Shown in pieces: positions 1 to 5,557 of a stretch of 5,557 nt of DNA; within the stretch, counting starts at the first letter, position 1, and each line of letters begins with the position of its first letter. The stretch comes from a bacterium (lineage in GTDB: Bacteria > UBP15 > UBA6099 > JAJRTR01): contig JAJRTR010000136.1 of assembly GCA_024278215.1 (NCBI GenBank), positions 1 to 5,557 of the forward strand, written 5' to 3'. The position numbers were made by a program, and so were the translations under genes. Under the pieces are notes generated by a model. It did no database searches and was not told the origin of the DNA. It saw only the letters and a program-made list of their open reading frames with translations.

Positions 1-110
1 GTTAAGTTAACGCCTATGGGTGCCTGTACCTGCTTTTCGCGTGTTGGGACTTTTTGCGCCGGAATCAACTTTTGTTTTTTGGGACCTGCCGTGTGGAAGC
101 GGGCACCTTG
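1..110 (-). repeat. dispersed repeat, copy 1 (core 66-110)
   Basis: The 45 bases at 66-110 recur at 2206-2250 in the same orientation with only two mismatches (positions 84 and 86 of this copy). Read on the minus strand the shared block encodes KVPASTRQVPKNKS-like residues, but it is probably a repeat rather than a protein domain. In this copy it is joined directly to the RAYT fragment, whose frame terminates inside it. Sequence to the left (1-65) has no counterpart at the second copy; it may be an extension of the same repeat family, which one window cannot show. Confidence 0.7.
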
Positions 111-310: not shown

Positions 311-327
311 AAACGGTGGCTGTCCCC
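311..327 (+). repeat. REP-like element end, copy 1
   Basis: The 17 bases AAACGGTGGCTGTCCCC are, on the opposite strand, the same sequence as 2135-2150 with one mismatch. The ACGGTGaCTGTCCC type of sequence is familiar as the terminal REP-like repeat accompanying RAYT transposases. Here it lies 5' of the RAYT fragment and points toward its upstream side, as expected for the 5' border of a REP-RAYT-REP unit. The tandem decamer array starts directly against its outer end. Confidence 0.55.
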
Positions 328-394
328 ATTATTCACCATTATTCACCATTATTCACCATTATTCACCATTATTCCCATTATTCCCCATTATTCC
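326..394. repeat. tandem decamer array, unit CCATTATTCA, about seven copies
   Basis: Four perfect copies of the 10-base unit occupy 326-365. Three degenerate copies follow (366-375, a 9-base unit at 376-384, and 385-394) in which the last base becomes C. The first unit overlaps the CCCC end of the REP-like element, so the array probably arose by replication slippage in the flank of that element. A 10-bp period is not a multiple of three, so the reading frame rotates along the array, which argues against coding. There are no spacers, so it is not a CRISPR array. Confidence 0.9.
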
Positions 395-538
395 GCAGTG
401 TTTGTTTTTTGTTTCCGTGTTTATCAGTGGAAATATGTTCGGTGCGGTTCGCAGTTCGCGCCCTACAGCGGAAAGTCATGCCGACAACGCGGATGAAGAC
501 ATCACGCGACGCGTTCTGTCATTGCCCGGGAGCGGCGG
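395..538. other. gene-free stretch downstream of the 237-aa gene
   Basis: With 1-394 this makes 538 bases without an intact gene. No open frame in it looks like a real protein; the frames crossing it are translations of repeats. The only visible structure is the imperfect hairpin at 488-508 and a short palindrome ACGCGACGCGT at 504-514. A transcript of the minus-strand gene pair would be expected to end here, but no hairpin plus T-tract terminator is evident. Confidence 0.5.
488..508 (-). terminator. imperfect hairpin, possible weak terminator or mRNA 3' stem
   Basis: CGCGGATG (488-495) and CATC-a-CGCG (500-508) pair as eight base pairs with one bulged A around the loop AAGA. It lies about 30 bases beyond the stop codon of the 237-aa gene in the direction of its transcription. 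No T-tract follows on the minus strand, so an intrinsic terminator is not demonstrated; it may only protect the mRNA end or be incidental. Confidence 0.25.
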
Positions 539-1252
539 TCACTTTTTCCTGCGCTCTTTCTCCATCCCGTCCGGTTCCTTTTCCCAATCGCCGGCGTCTA
601 TCTCATTTTCGTCGACGACCCTGCCGTAGACAATCATATCGAGTTGCTTTTCGACATCCTTGCAGTTTTCTCTGCCATCCTCATGAAACGGGTCGGCTAT
701 CACCTGAAGATACTTTTCATAATAATCCGGTTCCTTTCCGTACACATCCATATCAGGATAAATAAAGACCAGTCCCCCTATAAATAATGGACTGTATATA
801 AAAAGCAGTTGTTTGTCATTATAAAGTCTTCTGATTTCGTCCACATAATGTGCAGCCTCATCACATCTTTTTTCATCGTCCAGCCTGGAAATAAGCTCCG
901 AGTACAGCTCAATCAGTAATGTAGATTCCGTATCGAAATTCCGCCCGAAACTCATTTTGTACCCATCAAGTTTTGTATAACCCTCGATTCTCTTTTTTAC
1001 ATCATCCACCTCATTTTCATCCCTTTCGCTCTCCTTCCACTGAACCCGTTTCTCATCGTATAGCGAAGGCACAACATATTTGTAGATCATTATTATTTGC
1101 GGATCGTCAAGCGGTAAATAATAGCCCCGGCCATCATATTCCGGCCACCTGAACAGTGAATATCCGGTGATCAGAATACCGATTGCAGCAGCAATCATCG
1201 CAAATATAATAAATCCGGCAATCAGCCTTTTATTTCTTATCTTTACCTTCAT
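539..1252 (-). CDS. hypothetical membrane-anchored protein, 237 aa
   Basis: I do not recognise the family. The basic N-terminus (MKVKIRNKR) is followed by a hydrophobic helix at about residues 10-34, which should anchor the protein with its N-terminus in the cytoplasm and the rest outside the membrane. The middle (about 65-145) is charged and predicted helical (EKRVQWKESERDENEVDD; DEKRCDEAAHYVDEIRRLY). A second hydrophobic patch at 149-165 (LLFIYSPLFIGGLVFIY) may be a buried strand or a second membrane segment. The C-terminus (about 212-237) is acidic then lysine/arginine-rich, ending EKERRKK. The ATG is supported by GAGGAG five bases upstream. It lies 64 bases behind the 229-aa gene on the same strand, so one transcript is likely. 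Its DNA is much more AT-rich than the genes to the right: 781-840 has 16 G+C of 60. Confidence 0.75.
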   Translation of the reverse strand: MKVKIRNKRLIAGFIIFAMIAAAIGILITGYSLFRWPEYDGRGYYLPLDDPQIIMIYKYVVPSLYDEKRVQWKESERDENEVDDVKKRIEGYTKLDGYKMSFGRNFDTESTLLIELYSELISRLDDEKRCDEAAHYVDEIRRLYNDKQLLFIYSPLFIGGLVFIYPDMDVYGKEPDYYEKYLQVIADPFHEDGRENCKDVEKQLDMIVYGRVVDENEIDAGDWEKEPDGMEKERRKK

Positions 1253-1316: not shown

Positions 1317-2006
1317 TTATAAAACCATTCTCGCTATTTTACTGCTTCTGATAAATCCATCGTACTTGTCCTTTAATATTTCAAAGCCATAATACTTATA
1401 ATTATCTTTTCTGTTTAACATCTCTCTCAACACACTTCCAGCAATCTTTTTCTTCAAAAGGGGGTGCTCGACTTTATCATCGAACTTTTGCAACGCATCA
1501 AGCATCATCGCAGCCGCCCTCGCATCCGCACCCTTCTCATTTTTATGCAGATTGTACATTCTGTCAATTTCCCTTATGCGCTCGTCGAGTTTTCGGAATC
1601 GTTCAGCGTCTCTCTTAAGCATCAACGCCCTGCTTATGACGCCAGCTCCGGCTTTCTCGCCGTCGCCCATGCCCCGTCCGATGAACGCCATAGGCTGGAA
1701 GTAGTCGCTTCCGCCTTTATAAGCAGCCGATACGGCACGGGCGTAGTCGGACGCATTGTCGAAGTCGAGCCCCATCTCACGGCAATACCCCCTTACCCGG
1801 TTTTCCCGTTCTTCATCTTCGATCTCTTCGGCAAGGCACTTAAAGCGTTCCCACTCTTCACATTCAGGCATGCTGTTCATGTGTGAGAATACGTAGTCGG
1901 TTTTCTCGCTATTGCCGAAAAGTCGATCTTCGATTATGTCTAAACGTTTGTCGATTCCGGCCAGTCTTCCGCCGAACTCTATTTTTGCGCTGTGTTCCGG
2001 ATCCAT
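1317..2006 (-). CDS. hypothetical charged helix-rich protein with a GLDxDxASxYARA motif, 229 aa
   Basis: I do not recognise the family as a whole. The protein has no signal peptide or membrane helix and is rich in charged helical segments: about 15-30 (LAGIDKRLDIIEDRLF), 50-72, 125-153 (ALMLKRDAERFRKLDERIREIDRMY) and 162-200. Residues 70-94 (RVRGYCREMGLDFDNASDYARAVSA) match the last part of the phage-type protease encoded at 2271-4157 in 13 of 25 positions, including Cys75, GLD, the second Asp, AS and YARA. In the protease that motif is C-terminal; here it is internal, followed by a glycine-rich turn (FIGRGMGDGEKAGAG). The ATG has GAGAGG ten bases upstream. It precedes the 237-aa gene by 64 bases on the same strand. 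The motif suggests a partner or paralogue of the phage-derived protein, but the function is unknown. Confidence 0.75.
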   Translation of the reverse strand: MDPEHSAKIEFGGRLAGIDKRLDIIEDRLFGNSEKTDYVFSHMNSMPECEEWERFKCLAEEIEDEERENRVRGYCREMGLDFDNASDYARAVSAAYKGGSDYFQPMAFIGRGMGDGEKAGAGVISRALMLKRDAERFRKLDERIREIDRMYNLHKNEKGADARAAAMMLDALQKFDDKVEHPLLKKKIAGSVLREMLNRKDNYKYYGFEILKDKYDGFIRSSKIARMVL

Positions 2007-2031
2007 ATTACATCATCCTCTCATAATTTGA

Positions 2032-2062
2032 AATATGCTTTCGCCATATTGCGCTATAGCAA
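2032..2062 (-). promoter_or_regulatory. weak candidate promoter for the 229-aa/237-aa gene pair
   Basis: On the minus strand TTGCTA (2062-2057) resembles a -35 box in four of six positions, and GCATAT/CATATT around 2038-2032 could serve as a -10 box with a spacer of 18-19 bases. This sits 26 bases or more before the 229-aa start and inside the AT-rich stretch. The match is poor and short boxes occur by chance, so this is only a place to look. Confidence 0.2.
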
Positions 2063-2134
2063 CTAAACCGGGTTTTGGGGTCAGACATAGAATAATGAAC
2101 AGATTTGCCCATTCAAAAAATGGGGACAAAAATA

Positions 2135-2150
2135 GGGACAGTCACCGTTT
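2135..2150 (-). repeat. REP-like element end, copy 2
   Basis: GGGACAGTCACCGTTT on the plus strand is the inverted copy of 311-327 with one mismatch. On the minus strand it reads AAACGGTGACTGTCCC and lies 3' of the dispersed repeat copy, as expected for the 3' border of a REP-RAYT-REP unit. Nearby TGGGGAC at 2121-2127 partly repeats its GGGAC end. Together with copy 1 it brackets the two AT-rich genes with inverted repeats about 1.8 kb apart. Confidence 0.55.
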
Positions 2151-2205
2151 TATCCTCCCGCTTTCTTGTCTTTTTCTGCCCCTTTCCTGGATTTGGATTT
2201 CTTGG

Positions 2206-2250
2206 CAACTTTTGTTTTTTGGGGCTTGCCGTGTGGAAGCGGGCACCTTG
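2206..2250 (-). repeat. dispersed repeat, copy 2
   Basis: This is the 45-base counterpart of 66-110 with two mismatches. On the minus strand it is followed by about 55 bases that are lysine/arginine-rich when translated and then by the REP-like end at 2150-2135. That order (repeat, basic tail, REP) would fit the 3' end of a degenerate RAYT unit, complementary to the 5' end kept at 65-327. No catalytic RAYT segment is left here. Confidence 0.7.
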
Positions 2251-2267
2251 TTTACGGAAACACAAGG
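2246..2267 (-). terminator. short inverted repeat just after the protease stop codon
   Basis: CCTTGTTT (2246-2253) can pair with AAACACAAGG (2258-2267), with a two-base bulge and an ACGG loop. It begins four bases beyond the protease stop codon on its coding strand. There is no T-tract after it, so it is a weak candidate for a transcript end. Confidence 0.25.
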
Positions 2268-2270
2268 GAA

Positions 2271-4157
2271 TCAACAGCGTCCATTAAGCGGCAGGGGAAT
2301 AACGTATTCGCCGACGGTGGAGGCGGCACGTGCGTAGGCGGAGGCGTCGTCGGGGTCGAGGCCGCGCGTGGCGCACCAGGCGGCGATGCGTTTGTCAAGG
2401 TCTGTGCTGTCGCCGGGGTCGCCGTGGCCGTTCGCGCCGCCCTGCCCTGTTTTCTGTGCGCCGTATTCACTCATCGCGGGGTGTGCACCGAGCGAGTCGA
2501 TGAAGGCCATGAAGTCGACTGTGGAGACGGTGCGCGAAACGGCGTTGTCGCCGGAGCTGTCGCCGCCGGGCGCGGCGTATTCGCTTGCGGCGGGCGCGTC
2601 GCCGTCGAGCAGCGCGAGCATGTCGAGTATGACGCTGTGGTATGCGGGCGGGATAAACCGGCCACGTGTTTCAATGAATCGCCGCCTCTGTTTCTCCCTC
2701 AGCTTGCTTTCGCGGGTGCGGTATTCTTCGAGTTCGGCGACAGTTGCGTCGAGTCGTTGGGCAGTTTCTTTCAACTGTTGTCTGAATTCTTCTTCTGCGT
2801 TTTCGACTTCCGTTTCTGCTTTTGTTTCTGCTTCGTTGTCGATTTTTAACTTTTCATCCTGTTCCTTTTCCGTGTCGTTTTCGCTATCGTCATCAGATTC
2901 GGATTTTGGATCGGCCGGTTCTGAAACCTTGCCTTCCGCTGCATTATTCACCGCGAGCGCACCTGATTCTTCATCGACAGCGTTCTTTTCTTCCAGCTTG
3001 TTTTTCTTTGCTTCGATCTTTTCATCTTTCTTTTCACCTTTTTCCGCAGGCGCCGAGCCATAAGCATATTCGGCGACGCCGGATATGCTCACGCCCGTGT
3101 CGTCCGCGTCGTAGAGATAGGCGACTGTTTCGGGCGAGAGTTCATAGAGAGCGCTGATGTCGGCGAGCGAGCCGATGGCGGGCAGTCGGGCGCCGAGCAG
3201 GGCGAGGCCCGCGGCGACATGTTTGTAGACTCTGCCGTCTGCGGCGTCCCTGAAGTCGTGCAGCACTTCGAGGCTCCGTTTCTTGTATGCGTTGCTTTTT
3301 ATCAACTCGAATATTTTTTTCGGCACATCCTTGAGGTCTGCGAGCAGACTGCCGCCCCTGACGCGCAGGTTCGCCAGCCAGCCCGCGGCGGGGAGTCCGT
3401 CGCTTTTCAGCAACGGCTGTTCCTTCTCGTGGCCGAGTTTCACAGGCGCCTCGAAGCGGCCCTTGAGGTTGTTGTAAGCGTCGGCCATCTCGCGCAGGTC
3501 GTTTTCCGTGTAGTTTATCGTCCTGCCGGTGCTGTCGGTCCATTCGCCGGTCCTGAATATCTCGACGTTTTCGATGTCGAAAGTTTCGTGCGCGGCTGCC
3601 GGTGTTGTGCTCGTGGTGGCGTCCGGTATTGTTTCCCGCGCTGCTTCATGTGCGGCGGCGTCTGCGACACTATGCGAGCTTTCCGCCGTGTCGATCCGGT
3701 CTTTCTCTGCAAATATATAGGATACGCCCAGGCCCTCGCCGGGTTCTTCACGCGTTGCGGCTTTGTCGTCATATTCCGTCAGGACATAATAGAACCCATC
3801 GGCGTGTTCCTCGACCGTGTGGTCTTCATCCAGCGGCAGGTCCGTTTCCGTTTCGATCCATTCTTCCGCTTCGCCCGCGTTTCTGAAATGCTTTTTCGCG
3901 AATTTTATTGCAACACGCGAGTATCCGGGGCCGGAGTCGTTCTTTACGTCTTCACCGGATTCGCTCCAGAGACCGTCGGCGAGTTCGTGAGTGCGGCGGA
4001 ACCGCGCCACCGCGACGCCCCACGGATTCCTGACAGTATCATCGTGCGCAAAACTTTCCGCCCATTGCGCTATCATCTTGGCCTGATCGAGCGTAAGCGG
4101 CGCGCCGCCTATTTTCCTGAGTCTTTCCGGTACTTCATCAATTGATTGCCACGACAT
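2271..4157 (-). CDS. Mu gpI-like phage capsid maturation protease/scaffold fusion protein, 628 aa
   Basis: Numbering is from the ATG at 4157. Residues 1-64 (SIDEVPERLRKIGGAPLTLDQA..., then NPWGVAVARFRRTHE) are a ChaB-like module common at the front of phage head proteins. Residues 81-101 (VAIKFAKKHFRNAGEAEEWIE) resemble the small XkdF-type module that often follows it; this is a weaker call. Residues 197-336 carry the Mu-like protease signature: VEIFRTGEWTDSTGR, a tyrosine-rich DAYNN helix, EAPVKLGHEKE (His243), KKRSLEV (Ser295) and ALLGARLPAIGSLADI. His243 and Ser295 fit the expected catalytic pair. A Lys/Glu/Asp-rich low-complexity linker (370-450) and a coiled coil (452-494) follow, as in protease-scaffold fusions. 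The C-terminus holds C-x3-GLDPDDASAYARA (595-611). Family members cleave scaffold and capsid subunits during procapsid maturation. No other phage head gene is in the window. An upstream in-frame ATG at 4235 lacks a ribosome binding site. Confidence 0.85.
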   Translation of the reverse strand: MSWQSIDEVPERLRKIGGAPLTLDQAKMIAQWAESFAHDDTVRNPWGVAVARFRRTHELADGLWSESGEDVKNDSGPGYSRVAIKFAKKHFRNAGEAEEWIETETDLPLDEDHTVEEHADGFYYVLTEYDDKAATREEPGEGLGVSYIFAEKDRIDTAESSHSVADAAAHEAARETIPDATTSTTPAAAHETFDIENVEIFRTGEWTDSTGRTINYTENDLREMADAYNNLKGRFEAPVKLGHEKEQPLLKSDGLPAAGWLANLRVRGGSLLADLKDVPKKIFELIKSNAYKKRSLEVLHDFRDAADGRVYKHVAAGLALLGARLPAIGSLADISALYELSPETVAYLYDADDTGVSISGVAEYAYGSAPAEKGEKKDEKIEAKKNKLEEKNAVDEESGALAVNNAAEGKVSEPADPKSESDDDSENDTEKEQDEKLKIDNEAETKAETEVENAEEEFRQQLKETAQRLDATVAELEEYRTRESKLREKQRRRFIETRGRFIPPAYHSVILDMLALLDGDAPAASEYAAPGGDSSGDNAVSRTVSTVDFMAFIDSLGAHPAMSEYGAQKTGQGGANGHGDPGDSTDLDKRIAAWCATRGLDPDDASAYARAASTVGEYVIPLPLNGRC

Positions 4158-4163
4158 AACAAA

Positions 4164-4170
4164 CACCTCC
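4164..4170 (-). promoter_or_regulatory. strong Shine-Dalgarno deciding the protease start
   Basis: On the minus strand GGAGGTG (4170-4164) puts a near-perfect GGAGGT seven bases before ATG at 4157-4155. The in-frame ATG at 4235 has no such site, and the 26 residues it would add do not resemble the phage N-terminal module, which begins at MSWQSIDEVPE. The start at 4157 is therefore preferred. Confidence 0.85.
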
Positions 4171-4181
4171 ATAGGTTTCGC

Positions 4182-4207
4182 CGCTCCCGTTACAAACTGC
4201 GGGAGCG
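4182..4207 (-). promoter_or_regulatory. perfect 8-bp hairpin in the leader of the protease gene
   Basis: CGCTCCCG (4182-4189) and CGGGAGCG (4200-4207) are perfect inverted complements around a ten-base loop (TTACAAACTG). The stem is GC-rich and ends 12 bases before the strong ribosome binding site on the minus strand. It could be a leader-RNA structure or an operator. It has no T-tract on the minus strand; on the plus strand only TTT follows, so it is not a convincing terminator. Confidence 0.4.
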
Positions 4208-4358
4208 TTTCGGCGAGCAGCCTGCGTTCATTCATATTTCGCGAACCGCTCTCACCCTATGAAGGACGTTTCCGGGCCGGTTTCGGTCATGACTACCCAA
4301 AAAAGATGGTTTATAAGGCGCAAGGGCGAAAGCGAATTTTCGTTCGACCGACATTTGT

Positions 4359-4372: not shown

Positions 4373-5557
4373 GTGAAATGGAATAAGGCGAAATCATCTC
4401 GATACATCGCAGGAGACAGGCACGAAGTAGCCGCCTGCACAGTTTTTTTCTTTCTGGCGACCGGGGTGCTGTTTCTTGCCGCGCCGCCGCTGGGGATTTT
4501 GAACAATGCAGATGTCGCCGGTAATCTGAAACATTTCATGGCCTATGCGGAATCGGCGGCGGCGGGACTGCGCCCTTATGCAGATGTCCGCATCGAGTAT
4601 CCGCCGCTCGCAGCGCTGTGGCTGTGGGCTTTCGCGCCGTTCTCCGGAAGTTTCGCTCTCTATCATCTCGCATTCTCCGCTTCGATGCTGTTGTGGGCTT
4701 TCGCGGGGCTTGCGGGCGTATGGAGTATTGTCGGTTGCAGCGGCCGGGGCGACTGTTCGCATTTTGTGTCGCCGCGTGTCACGGCGACACTTCTATATGT
4801 GCTTTCGATGGCGGCGGTCGGCCCGATAGGGGGCGTCTCTTTCGATTACATACCGGCGGCGCTGGTGATATGGGCGGTGGCGGCGGAGCGGAAAGGCAGG
4901 GGCGGGGCGGCAATGGTTCTCCTTGCGCTGGGTTGCGGCGTGAAGATGTTTCCGGCGGTTGCCGTTCCGTTTTTTATTTTCAGAACATACCAGCTGCGGG
5001 GGCCGCGCCGTGCGGCGGTCGAACTTCTTGTTTTCGCGGCGGTTTGCTCGATGGTGTTCGGCATCCCGTACATTATAGCCCCGGAGGGTGTTGCGGCATC
5101 TTTCAAATATCATTTCGGACGCGGCATCGAGATCGGCAGCCTCTACGGTATGATGTTGCTTGTCGGCAAGTGGTTCGGGCTCGGCGCGGTCGCTGTTTTC
5201 AATCATGGCTCATGGAATGTCGCGGCAGGCGTCGCTTCGGATTTCCTGTCTCGAATATCCGGCATGATCCTGCTGCTTCTCGTCGCGGCGGTTTTCGCCC
5301 GGTACGTTTCGGCTTCAAAATCGACGGGAAGGAACGACGGCGGAGTTGACGACGGAGATACATTCCTCAGTGCGATAACATGCGTGCTGCTTGCGTTTAT
5401 AATCGGGTTTAAAGTCGGCTCACCGCAGTTCCTGTGCTGGGTGCTGCCGCTTGTGACGGCGGCGGGCGTGGTGACGGCGGCGGGCAGGTCGAGACTCTAC
5501 ATGTTTATATGCGCCGGGCTGCTCGGGCAGGCGGTTTTTCCGTGGTACTGGGAACAA
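4373..5557 (+). CDS. GT87/DUF2029-type polytopic membrane glycosyltransferase, 3' end outside window
   Basis: The frame is open for 395 codons from GTG (the first possible start after an in-frame TAA at 4361) to the last base, so the C-terminus is missing. The protein is strongly hydrophobic, with a first membrane helix at about 19-42 and several more (about 78-120, 136-170, 178-203, 213-236, 256-275, 296-312, 331-347, 352-369, 374-390). GT87-like landmarks are: NADVAGN in the first outer loop (Asp47, the likely GT-C catalytic acid), GLRPYADVRIEYPPLA (64-80), GVKMFPAVAVPFF (189-201), FGRGIEIGSLYG (248-259) and KVGSPQFLCWVLPL (347-360). Such enzymes use polyprenyl-phosphate sugars to modify glycolipids or cell-wall glycans outside the membrane; the acceptor here is unknown. 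It is divergent from the protease gene, 215 bases apart. Confidence 0.85.
   Translation, partial: MKWNKAKSSRYIAGDRHEVAACTVFFFLATGVLFLAAPPLGILNNADVAGNLKHFMAYAESAAAGLRPYADVRIEYPPLAALWLWAFAPFSGSFALYHLAFSASMLLWAFAGLAGVWSIVGCSGRGDCSHFVSPRVTATLLYVLSMAAVGPIGGVSFDYIPAALVIWAVAAERKGRGGAAMVLLALGCGVKMFPAVAVPFFIFRTYQLRGPRRAAVELLVFAAVCSMVFGIPYIIAPEGVAASFKYHFGRGIEIGSLYGMMLLVGKWFGLGAVAVFNHGSWNVAAGVASDFLSRISGMILLLLVAAVFARYVSASKSTGRNDGGVDDGDTFLSAITCVLLAFIIGFKVGSPQFLCWVLPLVTAAGVVTAAGRSRLYMFICAGLLGQAVFPWYWEQ

What the first reader, a model, noticed from the sequence alone, without database searches (positions are those of the whole stretch)
1725..2396. Same C-x4-GLDxDxASxYARA motif in the unknown 229-aa protein and in the phage-type protease
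Residues 70-94 of the 229-aa protein and 590-614 of the protease match at 13 of 25 positions, with shared Cys, GLD, AS and YARA. The coding DNA is also similar over this stretch. In the protease the motif is the C-terminal tail, where scaffold tails in head assembly often bind capsid or portal. A free-standing gene carrying the same tag internally, encoded just downstream on the same strand, hints at a shared binding partner: a two-component module not described to my knowledge.
Basis: partly seen in the sequence, partly recalled or inferred. Interest (0 to 1): 0.65.

Follow-up and report, generated by a model that had tools for sequence, protein, structure and literature searches.

The report
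Phage-head tag on swappable toxin-like effectors
In an uncultured bacterial phylum, a short tag from the tail of a phage-type head protease is also carried by proteins with interchangeable ends, each followed by a membrane-anchored, immunity-like gene, which suggests that phage-like particles are loaded with toxin-like cargo through this tag.

Summary
The two window proteins share the tag (13/25 residues). A profile built only from protease tails finds the 229-aa protein at E = 1.1e-9. All six proteases found in the phylum (GTDB UBP15) carry the tag, and no full-length tag turned up in about 380 other genomes.

The reading changes. In four relatives the tag is not the protease's end. It is followed by one of two unrelated C-terminal domains (T1, T2). 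DNA homology between two relatives stops at the codon after the tag and resumes at the next cassette. Orphan C-terminal domains and orphan partner genes lie downstream. This is the layout of polymorphic toxin/immunity loci. The 229-aa protein is a third, free-standing type: coiled coil, tag, helical C-terminus. The next gene (window 539-1252) encodes a membrane-anchored protein. Remnants of that C-terminus and of this partner lie side by side again near the capsid gene.

Head and tail genes are split over two loci and under purifying selection: GTA-like.

Best explanation: a protease/scaffold-tail tag loads polymorphic effectors into a phage-like head, as MuF toxins or T4 internal proteins do. 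Toxicity and packaging are inferred. It is not a MuF toxin.

The parts
2271..4235 (-). Phage-type head maturation protease (654 aa; start perhaps at Met27), ending 14 residues after the tag, without a C-terminal effector domain
   Evidence: phrog_976 E 1.2e-35, phrog_3894 E 9e-32; aligned with five UBP15 proteases
2316..2390 (-). Tag in the protease, residues 616-640 RIAAWCATRGLDPDDASAYARAAST
1317..2006 (-). 229-aa free-standing tagged effector-like protein (type T3)
   Evidence: no Pfam, PHROGs, NCBIfam, PADLOC or phage-record match
1725..1799 (-). Tag in the 229-aa protein, residues 70-94; predicted helix-loop-helix 65-78 / 85-95
   Evidence: model pLDDT about 50-69 here, low
1320..1652 (-). 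Predicted all-helical C-terminal domain of the 229-aa protein (residues 119-229), the candidate effector part; degenerate copies on contig C35 of the same genome
539..1252 (-). 237-aa protein with one N-terminal transmembrane segment (residues 10-28, after MKVKIRNKR): candidate immunity protein of the 229-aa protein
   Evidence: hydropathy; its only other copy in the genome is a remnant directly after a remnant of the 229-aa protein's C-terminus

Best explanation
The 229-aa protein is a cargo effector of a domesticated, phage-like (GTA-like) particle. It consists of a coiled-coil start, the head protease/scaffold tail tag, and a variable C-terminal domain; the membrane-anchored protein encoded next is its immunity partner. 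During head assembly the tag binds the same partner as the protease's own tail (coat protein, or portal), so the effector is enclosed in the procapsid. It leaves with the particle's contents and acts at the envelope of the recipient, while producer and kin are protected by the envelope-located partner protein. In relatives the C-terminal domains are fused to the protease itself directly behind the tag and are exchanged together with their partner genes. Shown: the shared tag, the domain switch exactly at the tag's end, pairing of C-terminal type with partner type, orphan cassettes, and conserved head and tail genes. Inferred: capsid binding, packaging, delivery, toxicity and protection.
For: Tag in all six UBP15 proteases and in free-standing proteins. 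G001 and G003 proteases are 86% identical over residues 1-503 and then unrelated; DNA homology ends at L045:11456 / L046:11450, the base after the tag, and resumes at 13425/12001. Arrangement: G003 = tag-T1-I1; G006 = tag-T2-I2; G001 = tag-T2-I2 plus orphan I1; G004 = tag-T1-I1 plus orphan T2-I2. T1 domains stand on the protease or on free-standing proteins, followed by I1-type membrane proteins. Remnants of the 229-aa C-terminus and of its partner are adjacent a second time, downstream of the capsid gene. Partner genes encode TM proteins or putative lipoproteins (sequence). Portal found in 6 and capsid in 5 of 7 genomes, TerL-portal and protease-capsid-tail in separate loci, omega 0.04-0.08 for capsid, TerL and portal within the genus. 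[quoted passage not shown]
Against: No C-terminal type matches a known toxin. T1 has only a weak profile hit to a ricin-B-type lectin (E 8e-4), which could mean a binding domain. AlphaFold models are poor (pLDDT 53 and 35). Homology of the tag to other phage protease tails is not established (hhalign probability 9.5%). Tags in the G001/G006 free-standing T1 proteins are diverged (E 0.016). Four of the six tag-bearing genomes are one genus, and all are metagenome assemblies. The C35 remnants show the pair together but are decayed.
Confidence: 0.6

Rival explanations
1. Ejection protein and superinfection exclusion. The variable C-terminal domains are head-internal ejection proteins, and the membrane or lipoprotein partners block entry of particles carrying the matching domain. 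The pair then serves exclusion, not killing.
For: All partner proteins look envelope-located; no toxin domain is recognised. Prophage exclusion proteins are often small membrane or lipoproteins (own knowledge).
Against: Orphan C-terminal domains and switching at a fixed boundary are more typical of polymorphic toxins. In MuF systems the same arrangement is toxin plus immunity (PMC11699363).
Confidence: 0.15
2. Assembly accessory. The 229-aa protein is an extra scaffold or portal/coat-binding factor that works with the protease; its neighbour is unrelated.
For: Shared tag; position beside the protease.
Against: No full-length homologue in the other six genomes of the phylum, unlike capsid or portal. 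Its C-terminus and the neighbour's product occur together twice. The tag in relatives is joined to exchangeable domains.
Confidence: 0.1
3. Relic. The 229-aa protein is a decayed duplicate of a protease end fused to unrelated sequence, without function.
For: Close copies of its C-terminus on C35 are broken; the gene pair lies between 45-bp repeats.
Against: The window ORF is intact over 229 codons. The tag is conserved at protein level while third positions are randomised, which implies long selection on the protein.
Confidence: 0.07
4. The tag is only a recombination homology arm for swapping C-terminal ends; its protein function is incidental.
For: DNA homology between relatives stops exactly at its end.
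Against: Between the two window copies the DNA is too diverged (44/75 nt, 11/25 at third positions) to serve recombination, yet the residues are kept.
Confidence: 0.05

Closest known systems
MuF polymorphic toxins (phage head protein gpF/SPP1 gp7 domain fused to toxin domains; Zhang 2012 PMC3482391, Jamet 2017 PMC5576092, Bxa PMC11699363)
   Same: A phage head-morphogenesis protein carries exchangeable C-terminal domains, with partner genes encoded directly downstream; packaging into the head is proposed there too
   Different: The constant part here is the tail tag of the head protease/scaffold, not a MuF domain. The tag also occurs on free-standing proteins. Head genes are split over two loci with no integrase noted beside them. 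C-terminal types are unknown and partners are envelope proteins
T4 internal proteins with capsid targeting sequence (PMC3012670)
   Same: A short conserved targeting segment on otherwise diverse cargo proteins, directing them into the scaffolding core
   Different: The tag here sits between two parts of the protein, its sequence was not compared with T4's, and its cargo has immunity-like partners
P22 scaffold C-terminal coat-binding helix-turn-helix and its use for cargo loading (PMC12005531, PMC9962691)
   Same: A helix-loop-helix at the C-terminal end of a scaffold; fusions to it are enclosed in the head
   Different: P22 cargo fusions are engineered; here fusions would be natural. No sequence relation was tested
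CDI/Rhs polymorphic toxins
   Same: Constant N-terminal part, sharp boundary, exchanged C-terminal ends with cognate partner genes, orphan cassettes downstream
   Different: No secretion-system delivery part; the constant part is a phage head protease

Membership tests
Polymorphic toxin system | Constant delivery part followed by unrelated, exchanged C-terminal domains with a sharp boundary | tested here: met
   (boundary at the codon after the tag)
Polymorphic toxin system | Cognate partner gene directly downstream, moving with its C-terminal domain | tested here: met
   protection itself not tested
Polymorphic toxin system | Orphan C-terminal/partner cassettes | tested here: met
   G004 orphan T2-I2, G001 orphan I1, C35 remnants
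Polymorphic toxin system | Toxic activity of the C-terminal domain | not testable with these tools
   No known toxin domain found
MuF polymorphic toxins | N-terminal MuF domain | tested here: not met
   No MuF match in the 229-aa protein, the protease or the free-standing proteins scanned
MuF polymorphic toxins | Encoded in a head-morphogenesis cluster | tested here: met
   Protease first, capsid and tail genes following
Gene transfer agent | Phage structural genes kept under purifying selection without phage replication or integration genes beside them | tested here: inconclusive
   Two loci, omega 0.04-0.08 within the genus; no integrase noted next to them in the ORF lists, but contigs are incomplete
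Gene transfer agent | Particles carry random host DNA | not testable with these tools
   Uncultured lineage
Capsid targeting sequence / scaffold coat-binding domain | Binds coat or portal and directs cargo into the procapsid | not testable with these tools
   Only position and predicted helix-loop-helix
Capsid targeting sequence / scaffold coat-binding domain | Sequence relation to tails of other phage head proteases | tested here: inconclusive
   hhalign probability 9.5%, E 0.0034

The most novel reading that the evidence does not exclude
A domesticated phage-like particle of a whole uncultured phylum serves as a weapon. Polymorphic toxins are loaded into its head through the tail tag of the head protease, either as protease fusions or as separate tagged proteins, and kin are protected by envelope-anchored immunity proteins.
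Probability: 0.4. Interest if true: 0.85.

Novelty: new variant of a known kind. Interest (0 to 1): 0.66.

Why it matters
If true, it would show a second natural way, besides MuF, of arming a phage head with exchangeable toxins, with a short portable tag. It would link GTA-like particles to antagonism between bacteria, and it would give a ready genetic tag for loading proteins into phage heads. The binding and toxicity steps can be tested in laboratory E. coli.

Tried and rejected
Recent duplication of the tag as DNA: rejected, third codon positions are near random. MuF toxin: no MuF domain. Known toxin fold: no match in Pfam, NCBIfam, PADLOC, PDB sequences or by Foldseek of the 229-aa model; the T1 model is too poor to search (pLDDT 35). 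Common homology of the 229-aa C-terminus with T1 or T2: not supported by shuffles. A shared linker motif (ESDYAK...) joins T2 with two T1 proteins but not the 229-aa protein. Viral-contig searches with the T1 proteins and with the 229-aa protein found nothing; phage records have no match for the 229-aa protein. T1 outside UBP15: none in 386 genomes searched. Tag outside UBP15: only partial, chance-level hits. A paper search for 'head maturation protease' with 'polymorphic toxin' gave no paper.

Full report
OBSERVATION. The window is the whole of contig C110 of a metagenome-assembled genome. Its phylum holds seven genomes. Named records of close relatives, among them UBP15_UBA6099 and ADurb.Bin236, place it in GTDB UBP15 (the naming rests on these record titles). 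The DNA is 44/75 identical with only 11/25 at third codon positions, so the likeness is kept at protein level. A profile built from the six protease tails alone finds the 229-aa protein at E = 1.1e-9 among 3971 ORFs.

WHAT THE TAG IS. The protease is a phage head maturation protease (phrog_976). All six UBP15 proteases found carry the tag. In the window genome and in RA.bin91 the protein ends soon after it. In G001, G003, G004 and G006 about 165 more residues follow. Those residues are of two unrelated types, T1 (G003, G004) and T2 (G001, G006). The tag is predicted as helix-loop-helix in both models made, although model confidence is low. Related proteases on viral contigs also end in a short tail of similar length, but a profile comparison does not establish homology. 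Among 386 genomes searched, full-length tags occur only in UBP15.

SWITCHING AT THE TAG. G001 and G003 DNA is about 92% identical up to L045:11456 / L046:11450, the base after the tag, and homology resumes at 13425/12001. Between these points G003 has T1, and G001 has T2 with two putative lipoprotein genes. G001 then keeps the T1 partner gene (I1) without T1. G004 has T1-I1 in place and a T2 domain, cut off from the protease, with the two lipoprotein genes further downstream. G006 has T2-I2 only. T1 domains also occur on free-standing proteins: G005 280 aa with a clear tag; G001 252 aa and G006 297 aa with a diverged tag. Each is followed by an I1-like membrane protein. This is the anatomy of polymorphic toxin loci.

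THE 229-AA PROTEIN. It has the same build as the free-standing proteins: N-terminal helix, tag, then a predicted all-helical C-terminus of a third type with no detectable relation to T1 and T2. The next gene (539-1252) encodes a protein with one N-terminal transmembrane segment preceded by positive charges. On contig C35 of the same genome, after the capsid gene, broken copies of the 229-aa C-terminus (C35:2685-2940, again at 4995-5054) are followed at 2973-3317 by a 63-65% identical remnant of that membrane protein. These are the only two places in the genome with that protein. The C-terminus and the partner therefore travel together. This supports reading the pair as effector and immunity protein.

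THE PARTICLE. Six of seven genomes have a Mu-type portal gene (PF06074) and five have the capsid gene. TerL and portal lie in one locus. Protease, capsid, head-tail adaptor and tail genes lie in another, with T1 effectors again at the far end of the tail genes in G001, G003 and G006. Upstream of the protease are cellular genes, not the portal, in three genera. Within the genus, omega is 0.04-0.08 for capsid, TerL and portal. A domesticated, GTA-like particle is the simplest reading, but DNA transfer is untested and contigs are incomplete. Locus positions are not fully conserved: in G001 and G003 the TerL-portal segment is bounded by dispersed repeats.

MECHANISM. Most likely the tag is the piece of the protease/scaffold that holds it to the coat or portal. 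Any protein carrying it would be enclosed in the procapsid, as T4 internal proteins are through their capsid targeting sequence (PMC3012670) or cargo fused to P22 scaffold (PMC9962691). The exchangeable ends would be antibacterial effectors, and the envelope-located partners would protect producers. MuF toxins are the known parallel (PMC3482391, PMC5576092, PMC11699363). Shown here: tag, switching, pairing, orphan cassettes, particle genes. Inferred: binding, packaging, delivery, toxicity, protection. The main weakness is that no C-terminal type resembles a known toxin; T1 even has a weak lectin-like hit. An ejection-protein/exclusion pair therefore remains possible.

NOVELTY. It is not a MuF toxin, because the defining domain is absent. 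It works like one and like the T4 system. I rate it a new variant of a known kind; the paper search found no description of protease-tail-tagged polymorphic effectors (the library is limited to open-licence papers).

Noticed in passing
window 66-110 and 2206-2250: 45-bp direct repeats (96% identical) lie on either side of the 229-aa/237-aa gene pair; they might be traces of cassette insertion or a dispersed repeat. Their number elsewhere in the genome was not counted.
   Followed up: partly
window 321-402: Tandem run of a 9-10 bp unit (ATTCACCATT) downstream of the 237-aa gene, near the contig end.
   Followed up: no
L060 (G001:C11) 3646-12557: Integrase-bearing element with replication protein O, its own terminase genes and no capsid noted; the 215-aa protein next to its terminase carries the protease tag twice (E 4e-7). 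It could be a satellite that uses the tag to exploit the particle.
   Followed up: partly
L058 11751-12997 (G003:C30): Two tandem I1-type membrane-protein genes behind a frameshifted T1 effector, as in a small immunity array.
   Followed up: no
L044-L046: A 186/187-aa multi-TM protein follows I1 in G001, G003 and G004; its role is unknown.
   Followed up: no
L011 1666-2715: A glycosyltransferase-like gene sits directly behind the capsid gene in the window's genome, where relatives have a 458-460 aa protein of unknown function.
   Followed up: no
L043 4327-4685: In RA.bin91 the gene after the protease starts a protein with a T1-like linker but no clear tag; it is cut by the contig end.
   Followed up: no
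L079 7795-7941 and 14382-14524: A roughly 145-bp dispersed repeat borders the TerL-portal segment in G001; flanks differ from G003, which suggests repeat-driven rearrangement.
   Followed up: partly
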